The notes under the pieces: generated by a model
What the model was told of the DNA's origin: nothing
Seen by the model: only the letters and a program-made list of their open reading frames with translations
Database searches by the model: none
Translations under genes and position numbers: made by a program
Shown: piece after piece, positions 1 to 31,255 of the stretch
Position numbering within the stretch: the stretch's first letter is position 1
How the letters are laid out: the number at the start of each line of letters is the position of its first letter
From: Candidatus Dojkabacteria bacterium
GTDB taxonomy: Bacteria > Patescibacteriota > Dojkabacteria > SC72 > JAFGCJ01
Direction: 5' to 3'
Length of the DNA: 40,970 nucleotides
Assembly: GCA_016932785.1 (NCBI GenBank)
Contig: JAFGCJ010000003.1
Location: 1-40,970, forward strand

Positions 1-2645
<2,645 letters not shown>

Positions 2646-2950: not shown

Positions 2951-3027
2951 TGGTGGGCGCACCTAGAGTCGAACTAGGGACCTCAGTCTTATCAGGACTG
3001 CGCTCTAACCAACTGAGCTATGCGCCC
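2951..3027 (-). tRNA. tRNA-Ile(GAT)
   Basis: Minus: GGGCGCATAGCTCAGTTGGTTAGAGCGCAGTCCTGATAAGACTGAGGTCCCTAGTTCGACTCTAGGTGCGCCCACCA; anticodon loop CTGATAA; CCA encoded. Confidence 0.96.
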
Positions 3028-3210
3028 GCATCGGAAATCCCGCCGTCCAATTCAGACTTAGACCTTTTCCCGTCCGACTATCCAGGGCAATATATAAGTC
3101 CACCTTCAATTAACACTTCACTATAAAAAGAGCAATCGCGCGATCAAAGTATATCTCAACAACATGCTCCTTGATCTCCAAAAAGTGGTAGTTAGTAGAT
3201 CACTCCTTAG

Positions 3211-4777
<1,567 letters not shown>

Positions 4778-29551: not shown

Positions 29552-29580
29552 TTGATATAGAACCTTTATATAAATATAAT
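29552..29580 (+). promoter_or_regulatory. Promoter for the recombinase leader
   Basis: TTGATA (29552-29557)-N17-TATAAT (29575-29580). Confidence 0.75.
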
Positions 29581-29586
29581 GAAATT

Positions 29587-29670
29587 GGAGTGCTACAACA
29601 AGAAGAACGTATTTAAATAGGCGTCCCCGCTGCAGAATACGTTCTGTAGCACTCCAGGGGGCGCCTATTT
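29587..29670 (+). promoter_or_regulatory. Crossed inverted-repeat leader before the serine recombinase
   Basis: Stem A: 29587-29596/29646-29655 plus 29604-29613/29636-29645 (20 bp); stem B: 29615-29628/29657-29670 (14 bp). Interleaved; begins at the predicted start site. Confidence 0.85.
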
Positions 29671-29690
29671 AGTTGTAAAAAGTATTAAAT

Positions 29691-31244
29691 ATGAAATATC
29701 TCGCATATTGCAGAAAAAGCTCAGAAAGCTCCGAGGCTCAAGCTCTCTCACTACCAGCTCAGGAACGAGAAATGAAAGAGCTCGCAATACGTGAAAACCT
29801 TGGTCTAAAGGCCATTCTTCAAGAAAGTAAGTCGGCAAGGATACCAGGAAAAAGACCCGTATTTACAAAAATGCTAGAAGAAATTCGAAGTGGCTCAGCT
29901 CAAGGGATTCTTTGTTGGCATGTAAACAGGCTTGCACGAAACTGGAAGGACGCCGGAGAACTTATGCAAATGCTTACTGACAACATCCTCAAAGAAATCA
30001 TTACACCAGAAAGAAGAATTACAAGTAGCAATACGAACGATATCCTTCTAGGCGTAGAGTTCGGACAGTCCTCGCAATACTCGAAGGAGCTAAGTCAAAA
30101 CGTTAAAAGAGGAATCAGAGAAAAGATAGCCAGAGGCCAATTCTGTGGAAGAGCCCCATACTTCTACATCAACACAGGCACAAGCAAAATGAACAAAAAC
30201 ATCGGACCCGATCCTAAAACCGCACACTACTACGAAGAATGGATCGACTTCGTAATAAAAACAAAAGCTAGCTACAGAAAAGCAACCAAGTGGCTAAATG
30301 ACAAGGGATTAAGAACCCGAAAAGGAAAAAAATTTCTAAAGAGCACAGTACAGAAAATGCTCAACAACAGCACCTACTGTGGAATACAGCGATTTGGCAA
30401 CTTTCCAGAGAACCACGGAACTTGGAAGCCACTCATCAGCAAGAAAAAATTCCAAGAGCTTCAGGAGATACTTGGTGAAAAGAGAAAACCAAGATTTTAC
30501 TCACACACAAAAGGCTACAAAGGCCTAATGAAATGCGCTCACTGCGGTTGTGCAATAACAAGTACACACAAGATCAAGAATGGAAAAAGCTACATATACT
30601 ACCACTGCACAGGAAGACGAGGTAAGTGTCCACAACCTTACATAACTGAGGAAGAGCTTGAAAATCAGATATTTGAGAACATAACACAAATCGAAATTGA
30701 CAAAGAGACTCTCGATTACTGCATGAAATTAATCAAGGAAAAAGTTGCGGACGAAAACGATAGCTATGAAAAAAGGCGCTCTGATACCAATAAAGAACTT
30801 ACCAAAATCCAAAATATGCTAAACGAACTCCTTGATATGAGACTTAAAAAGGAAATGTCACAAGATGATTATGAGACAAAGAAACAAGAACTAATGGACA
30901 GCAAGGAAGAAATAGCATCAAAACAAAACGACAACGAGTTCAACCAAGAGCGATGGATAGAGAACTTAGAGAGTTTCATCAACACCTGTTTCAAGATCGA
31001 AAAAATATTTAATCAGGGTACTATCGACGAGCGGTCAGAACTGGTAAAGGCCGTCGGTCAGAACCTCACACTAGAAGACGGAAGACTAAACTGGACCTTT
31101 AAGAAACCTTGGTCTTACATGCTAATCGAGCAACCAGAAGAATTTGAAGACATGAACTCTGAAGAAAAGCGGACACTATGGTGGGCGCAGGTGGACTCGA
31201 ACCACCGACCCCGGCTTTATAAGAACCGTGCTCTAACCGGCTGA
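29691..31244 (+). CDS. Large serine recombinase (resolvase + recombinase + zinc ribbon)
   Basis: YLAYCRKSSESSEAQALSLPAQE, CWHVNRLARNWKDAGEL, zinc ribbon CAHCGCAITSTHKIKNGKSYIYYHCTGRRGKCPQPYI; last residues WAQVDSNHRPRLYKNRALTG are antisense to the tRNA. Confidence 0.93.
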   Translation: MKYLAYCRKSSESSEAQALSLPAQEREMKELAIRENLGLKAILQESKSARIPGKRPVFTKMLEEIRSGSAQGILCWHVNRLARNWKDAGELMQMLTDNILKEIITPERRITSSNTNDILLGVEFGQSSQYSKELSQNVKRGIREKIARGQFCGRAPYFYINTGTSKMNKNIGPDPKTAHYYEEWIDFVIKTKASYRKATKWLNDKGLRTRKGKKFLKSTVQKMLNNSTYCGIQRFGNFPENHGTWKPLISKKKFQELQEILGEKRKPRFYSHTKGYKGLMKCAHCGCAITSTHKIKNGKSYIYYHCTGRRGKCPQPYITEEELENQIFENITQIEIDKETLDYCMKLIKEKVADENDSYEKRRSDTNKELTKIQNMLNELLDMRLKKEMSQDDYETKKQELMDSKEEIASKQNDNEFNQERWIENLESFINTCFKIEKIFNQGTIDERSELVKAVGQNLTLEDGRLNWTFKKPWSYMLIEQPEEFEDMNSEEKRTLWWAQVDSNHRPRLYKNRALTG

Positions 31245-31255
31245 GCTATGCGCCC
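31179..31255 (-). tRNA. tRNA-Ile(TAT)
   Basis: Minus: GGGCGCATAGCTCAGCCGGTTAGAGCACGGTTCTTATAAAGCCGGGGTCGGTGGTTCGAGTCCACCTGCGCCCACCA; anticodon loop CTTATAA; CCA encoded. Confidence 0.93.

What the first reader, a model, noticed from the sequence alone, without database searches (positions are those of the whole stretch)
29587..29670. Crossed double-stem leader directly in front of the serine recombinase
Seen: stem A pairs 29587-29596 with 29646-29655 and 29604-29613 with 29636-29645 (20 bp in all). Its loop holds AAATAGGCGTCCCC, which pairs over 14 bp with GGGGGCGCCTATTT right after stem A. When B forms, GCUGCAGAA-UACG-UUCUGUAGC can fold inside it. The connecting loops are too short for both full stems to coexist as a simple pseudoknot, so this looks like a bistable RNA switch. 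A TTGATA-N17-TATAAT promoter places the RNA 5' end at the first base of stem A. It may gate expression of the recombinase, or act as a DNA cruciform/recombinase site.
Basis: partly seen in the sequence, partly recalled or inferred. Interest (0 to 1): 0.78.

Follow-up and report, generated by a model that had tools for sequence, protein, structure and literature searches.

The report
Pseudoknot RNA leader controlling tRNA-targeting integrases
In front of the DNA-integrating enzyme of a mobile element lies an RNA leader with two long crossing stems, and the same hinged, crossed fold recurs with quite different sequences in dozens of distantly related tiny (Patescibacteria) bacteria, so it is a real, apparently undescribed RNA that probably controls how much integrase is made.

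Summary
Window 29586-29671 contains a hinged hairpin (A 12 bp, 5' bulge, C 10 bp) whose apical loop (B1) pairs over 15 bp with the sequence directly after the hairpin (B2). A TTGATA-N17-TATAAT promoter places +1 at the first base of A. The layout recurs in 60-odd serine-recombinase leaders across Patescibacteria. Stem sequences differ almost completely but pair; A and B both covary on alignments made without structure (0/500 shuffles). B2 abuts A2 (gap 0 in 46 of 69), the -10 box keeps a fixed distance from A1, and B2 ends in a U-tract a median 15 nt before the start codon. Of 34 covariance-model hits in 384 genomes, 30 lie directly before a serine recombinase. Rfam has no match and I found no paper on it. 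Best reading: a cis-acting pseudoknot leader in which docking of the apical loop on B2 lowers integrase expression, by attenuation and/or blocked ribosome access. Structure, association and promoter phasing are shown; the direction of control is inferred. 'Loops too short to coexist' is only partly right: a rigid-helix model lets 8 to all of the B pairs form with the hairpin intact. A DNA cruciform or recombination site is unlikely.

The parts
29552..29580 (+). promoter: TTGATA (29552-29557), 17-nt spacer, TATAAT (29575-29580); predicted +1 about 29587
   Evidence: 11 of 12 consensus matches; the -10 box lies 11-12 nt before A1 in relatives. A promoter match alone is expected about once in shuffles of the region, so the phasing in relatives is the real evidence.
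29586..29597 (+). A1, 5' arm of the outer stem; its first bases are the predicted 5' end of the RNA
   Evidence: 12-bp perfect inverted repeat with 29645-29656; A covaries in relatives
29598..29603 (+). 5' bulge between A and C, the proposed hinge
   Evidence: bulge of 7 nt on the 5' side and 0 on the 3' side in the fold; same 5' asymmetry in 64 of 65 leaders
29604..29613 (+).
   Evidence: 10-bp perfect inverted repeat with 29636-29645; the C stem has 3 double-changed pairs in the close group L234/L235/L237/L240
29614..29628 (+). B1, in the apical loop
   Evidence: 15 nt complementary to 29657-29671, 93%; B covaries in relatives
29636..29645 (+). C2, 3' arm of the upper stem
29645..29656 (+). 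A2, 3' arm of the outer stem
29657..29671 (+). B2, directly abutting A2, 19 nt before the start codon; followed only by a weak U-rich stretch in this member
   Evidence: gap 0 in 46 of 69 leaders; start-codon distance median 15 nt
29629..29650 (+). alternative inner hairpin GCUGCAGAA-UACG-UUCUGUAGC, formed only if A and C open
   Evidence: part of the nested minimum-energy fold
29691..31244 (+). large serine recombinase (integrase), 517 aa
   Evidence: Pfam Resolvase, Recombinase and Zn_ribbon_recom, all above cut-off
31179..31255 (-). tRNA-Ile(TAT), antisense over the 3' end of the recombinase gene; presumed attachment end
   Evidence: ARAGORN and Rfam; same arrangement in 39 leader-bearing loci

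Best explanation
The element is the 5' leader of the integrase mRNA, a conserved structured RNA. Transcription starts at the first base of A1. As A2 emerges, the leader folds into a hairpin of two roughly one-turn arms, A and C (compact form; larger forms add a third arm), separated by a 5' bulge that lets it bend, with B1 exposed in the apical loop. B2 follows A2 without a gap, so the loop can dock on it and B can form stacked on A, giving a pseudoknot, or, in the compact members, a rearranged B-only state of similar energy. B2 is a GC core usually followed by a U-tract and lies about 15 nt before the start codon. Docked B is proposed to lower expression, by attenuating transcription at the U-tract and/or keeping ribosomes off the start; undocked B permits expression. 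The role would be to hold integrase at a low or conditional level in an element integrated antisense across a tRNA gene. Shown: structure, covariation, promoter phasing, zero gap, U-tract, start-codon distance, association with integrases. Inferred: coexistence of A and B in the cell, direction of control, trigger.
For: Covariation of A and B on a plain MAFFT alignment: 90.7% of cells paired against 73.4% in shuffles, covariation 0.537 against 0.204, 0 of 500, slid controls at most 0.14; double changes in A, C and B within four near-identical leaders. The -10 box is phased to A1. Gap A2-B2 is 0 in 46 of 69 although -3 to 15 was searched. T-run of 4 or more after the B2 core in 47 of 65. Median 15 nt from B2 to the start of an ORF over 150 aa. 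30 of 34 model hits in 384 genomes lie directly before a serine recombinase. The conserved unit runs from the -10 box to the U-tract while the flanks are unrelated. The rigid-helix model allows docking, and a crude pseudoknot energy is lowest in 37 of 69, window included.
Against: No expression or probing data. The window member has a poor U-tract (CUAUUUAG). In L080 and L075 the B2 end is not followed by a U-tract and a separate terminator follows, and five copies precede or neighbour other genes (L080, L075, L233, L239, L243). The B loop of 26-60 nt is long for an intrinsic terminator. No trigger is known. Many related integrases lack the leader. The pseudoknot energy and geometry are rough.
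Confidence: 0.5

Rival explanations
1. Strict bistable timer: nascent RNA folds A/C, which permits expression, then refolds slowly to B alone, which shuts each message off, as in kinetically trapped leaders such as hok or the MS2 maturation gene (analogy from general knowledge).
For: Nested A and B states nearly isoenergetic in the compact group, window included; stepwise folding of the window keeps A/C until about 29667 and then favours B.
Against: In the larger group the B-only state is often 8-17 kcal/mol less stable than the A state, yet B covaries there. A and B do not share a strand, and the strict zero gap is unexplained.
Confidence: 0.18
2. The leader is released as a discrete RNA that acts in trans, on the integrase protein or on another RNA.
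For: The conserved unit looks like a promoter-to-U-tract transcription unit. L242 has an intact element separated from the recombinase by a convergent gene; L080 and L075 have their own terminator.
Against: Nearly all copies directly precede a gene with a start codon a median 15 nt away. No target complementarity to the tRNA site (own score 7.64 against 7.41 swapped, permutation p 0.10).
Confidence: 0.12
3. mRNA stability element: the blunt 5' stem stacked on B shields the 5' end from decay enzymes.
For: The 5' end is the first base of A1 and lies at the A/B junction.
Against: Does not by itself explain the U-tract or the closeness of B2 to the start codon.
Confidence: 0.1
4. DNA-level site: cruciform or recombinase binding site.
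For: Long inverted repeats next to a recombinase gene.
Against: Fixed phase to a promoter and start site, little sequence conserved in the stems, far from the tRNA attachment end, absent from a second integrase in the same genome, present before non-integrase genes.
Confidence: 0.04

Closest known systems
Transcription attenuators (terminator/antiterminator leaders)
   Same: 5' leader with competing or conditional stems; GC stem followed by a U-tract just before the gene
   Different: A and B use separate strands instead of sharing one; B encloses 26-60 nt; the U-tract is not universal
Pseudoknot-controlled replication genes of IncI/IncB plasmids (general knowledge)
   Same: Apical loop of a leader hairpin pairs with sequence just upstream of a start codon
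   Different: There the pseudoknot is short, activates translation and is countered by an antisense RNA; no antisense promoter was established here
STAXI motif (Weinberg 2010, PMC2864571)
   Same: Pseudoknot RNA near integrases and other DNA-handling genes
   Different: STAXI is a small pseudoknot repeated two or three times; here a single long hinged hairpin with a long B stem, and no Rfam match
IS110 bridge RNA (general knowledge)
   Same: Structured RNA encoded next to a recombinase
   Different: Different recombinase family; no target-specific complementarity found

Membership tests
Structured RNA (conserved secondary structure) | Compensatory base changes in the proposed stems beyond shuffled and slid controls | tested here: met
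Any Rfam 15 family | Match to a covariance model | tested here: not met
   no match at gathering score or at E up to 1, other than tRNA, rRNA and tmRNA nearby
Intrinsic terminator / attenuator | GC stem directly followed by a U-tract | tested here: inconclusive
   47 of 65 have a T-run of 4 or more; the window's is weak; some copies have a separate terminator
Intrinsic terminator / attenuator | Mutually exclusive stems that share a strand | tested here: not met
   A1, A2, B1 and B2 are separate stretches
Loop-tail pseudoknot | Crossing stems that can exist in one molecule | tested here: inconclusive
   geometry allows 8 to all B pairs with the hairpin intact; crude energy favours it in 37 of 69; no probing
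Riboswitch | Binds a small ligand | not testable with these tools
   No binding assay available
RNA guide for recombination (bridge-RNA-like) | Complementarity to its own target site above that to swapped targets | tested here: not met
   39 leaders against 39 tRNA sites: own 7.64, swapped 7.41, permutation p 0.10

The most novel reading that the evidence does not exclude
The leader is released as a discrete pseudoknotted RNA that works with the serine integrase itself, for example as an RNA directionality or activity factor, which would make integration in these elements RNA-controlled.
Probability: 0.08. Interest if true: 0.95.

Novelty: new variant of a known kind. Interest (0 to 1): 0.76.

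Why it matters
It appears to be an undescribed RNA family spread over one of the largest and least cultivated bacterial groups, tied to tRNA-targeting serine integrases. How mobile elements control integrase expression in these tiny genomes is, as far as I could find, unknown; this gives a concrete, testable control element. The architecture (hinged hairpin of two nearly equal arms, loop docking on the adjoining 3' flank, 5' end at the junction) is a clear case for structural work.

Tried and rejected
RNA guide for the tRNA target: not supported. DNA cruciform or recombinase site: disfavoured. Known RNA family: no Rfam hit. B as a universal terminator: rejected, since the tail varies and some copies have a separate terminator. 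A widespread stand-alone form like L080/L075: a DNA search of 384 genomes gave only two short matches that show no sign of the element, and a pattern scan of viral contigs gave none. Correlation of lower- and upper-arm lengths over the whole set is not interpretable, because the choice of hinge in two-hinge leaders fixes it. Single-protein search of viral contigs found nothing. Literature searches found no description.

Full report
Observation. The promoter TTGATA-N17-TATAAT ends at 29580, so +1 is about 29587. The leader folds far more stably than shuffles (z -6.1), and the crossed arrangement scores well above shuffled sequence.

Relatives. The gene is a 517-aa large serine recombinase whose 3' end runs antisense into tRNA-Ile(TAT). 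Its closest recombinase relative found, 54% identical, is in a Dojkabacteria genome (L025); what looks like the same contig (same length) was returned as 'same class' by the genome search (L145), so the window is probably from Dojkabacteria. Searching upstream of homologues with a finder for A1-B1-A2-B2 showed the same layout with different sequences in dozens of leaders from Dojkabacteria, Falkowbacteria, Woesebacteria, Uhrbacteria, Moraniibacteriota, Kerfeldbacteria, Staskawiczbacteria and other Patescibacteria. Scanning both strands (about 2 million strand-bases), most high scores were integrase leaders; scores below about 33 include chance matches.

Covariation. The finder demands perfect helices, so its own pairing counts are circular; the swap test only shows that arms from different loci pair poorly (39-56%). 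Independent evidence comes from a plain MAFFT alignment of 15 leaders: 90.7% of cells paired against 73.4% in shuffles, covariation 0.537 against 0.204, no shuffle reaching it, slid controls at most 0.14; 10 of 11 A pairs and 11 of 15 B pairs have double changes. At close range, four leaders before divergent integrases (L234, L235, L237, L240) are highly similar from the -10 box to the U-tract and unrelated outside; they have double changes in A, C and B.

Anatomy. The -10 box lies 11-12 nt before A1 (32 of 51 match 5 of 6 or better at one of these two offsets). B2 follows A2 with gap 0 in 46 of 69 leaders although -3 to 15 was allowed. The main internal loop between the arms has more unpaired bases on its 5' side in 64 of 65. 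Counting by hand in that list, 23 leaders with essentially one main hinge have arms averaging 11.4 and 11.6 bp, about one helical turn each. After the GC core of B2 a T-run of 4 or more follows in 47 of 65. An ORF of more than 150 aa starts a median 15 nt after B2 (n = 62). Larger members add a third stem and more sequence conservation.

Can A and B coexist? A rigid-helix tether model with A2-B2 stacked end to end allows 8 to all of the B pairs with A and C intact (10 of 14 in the window), and in 10 of 11 tested leaders full B with C open. Some tether lengths were set by hand (for the window 3 nt was used between C and B1, about 1 in the sequence), so this shows possibility only. A crude pseudoknot energy (helix sums plus 9.6, minus 2 for stacking) puts A+B below the nested A state in 37 of 69, window included (-45.7 against -34.8). 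Stepwise folding keeps the window in A/C until about 29667 and then favours B. Nested A and B states are nearly isoenergetic in many compact leaders but not in most larger ones.

Association. A covariance model of 15 leaders (A stem only) searched against 384 Patescibacteria genomes gave 34 hits at E <= 0.001; 30 lie directly before a serine recombinase. Six of the 15 training leaders come from these genomes, so 24 of 28 is the independent figure. The other four: L242, a recombinase about 0.5 kb downstream with a convergent gene between; L233, HTH and IrrE-like protease; L239, N6/N4 DNA methylase; L243, small protein and DUF4145. Leaders can stay alike while integrases differ: L005 and L016 have similar leaders and 25% identical proteins. 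Carriage is not universal: many related integrases, including a second one in this genome, have none; roughly half or a little more of the strongest homologues carry it (counted by eye).

Mechanism. Cis-acting leader is the best reading: fixed start site, B2 next to the start codon, U-tract, integrase directly downstream. Docking of the apical loop on B2 is proposed to turn expression down. Direction and trigger are inference. Rivals: refolding timer, trans-acting RNA, stability element, DNA site.

Novelty. No Rfam family matches and searches of the held paper library found no description; STAXI is the nearest published motif by context and differs in architecture. Most subscription papers are not in that library, so prior description cannot be excluded.

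Noticed in passing
window 31179-31255: The recombinase's last residues (about WWAQVDSNHRPRLYKNRALTG) are encoded by the antisense strand of tRNA-Ile(TAT); the same overlap is common in relatives (39 leader-bearing loci with an antisense tRNA), so integrase mRNA would carry antisense tRNA sequence.
   Followed up: partly
L145 about 2965-3463 (-): The Dojkabacteria relative with the closest recombinase ends at a tmRNA gene instead of a tRNA.
   Followed up: no
L014 (own genome, G000:C3:261441-262967): A second integrase, 43% identical, ends at a tRNA-His and has no crossed leader; its upstream region is AT-rich with short palindromic repeats.
   Followed up: partly
L070 2642-2998, L076 and L082 upstream of the recombinase: A small predicted membrane protein lies between the crossed leader and the recombinase; L080(-) and L243 also have a small ORF directly after the element.
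   Followed up: partly
L080 5990-6121 and L075 6539-6668 (reverse-strand coordinates): Stand-alone copies of the element with conserved tail ACTCAAGCGGAAC and their own terminator, next to other genes of an integrase-bearing locus.
   Followed up: partly
L191 about 1340-1464 (-): Variant leader in which a further helix (AGACTTTAATC/GATTATAAAGTCT) and B both cross the first hairpin.
   Followed up: no
L233 and L239: The element precedes an HTH/IrrE-like pair and an N6/N4 DNA methylase, so it is not strictly confined to integrases.
   Followed up: partly
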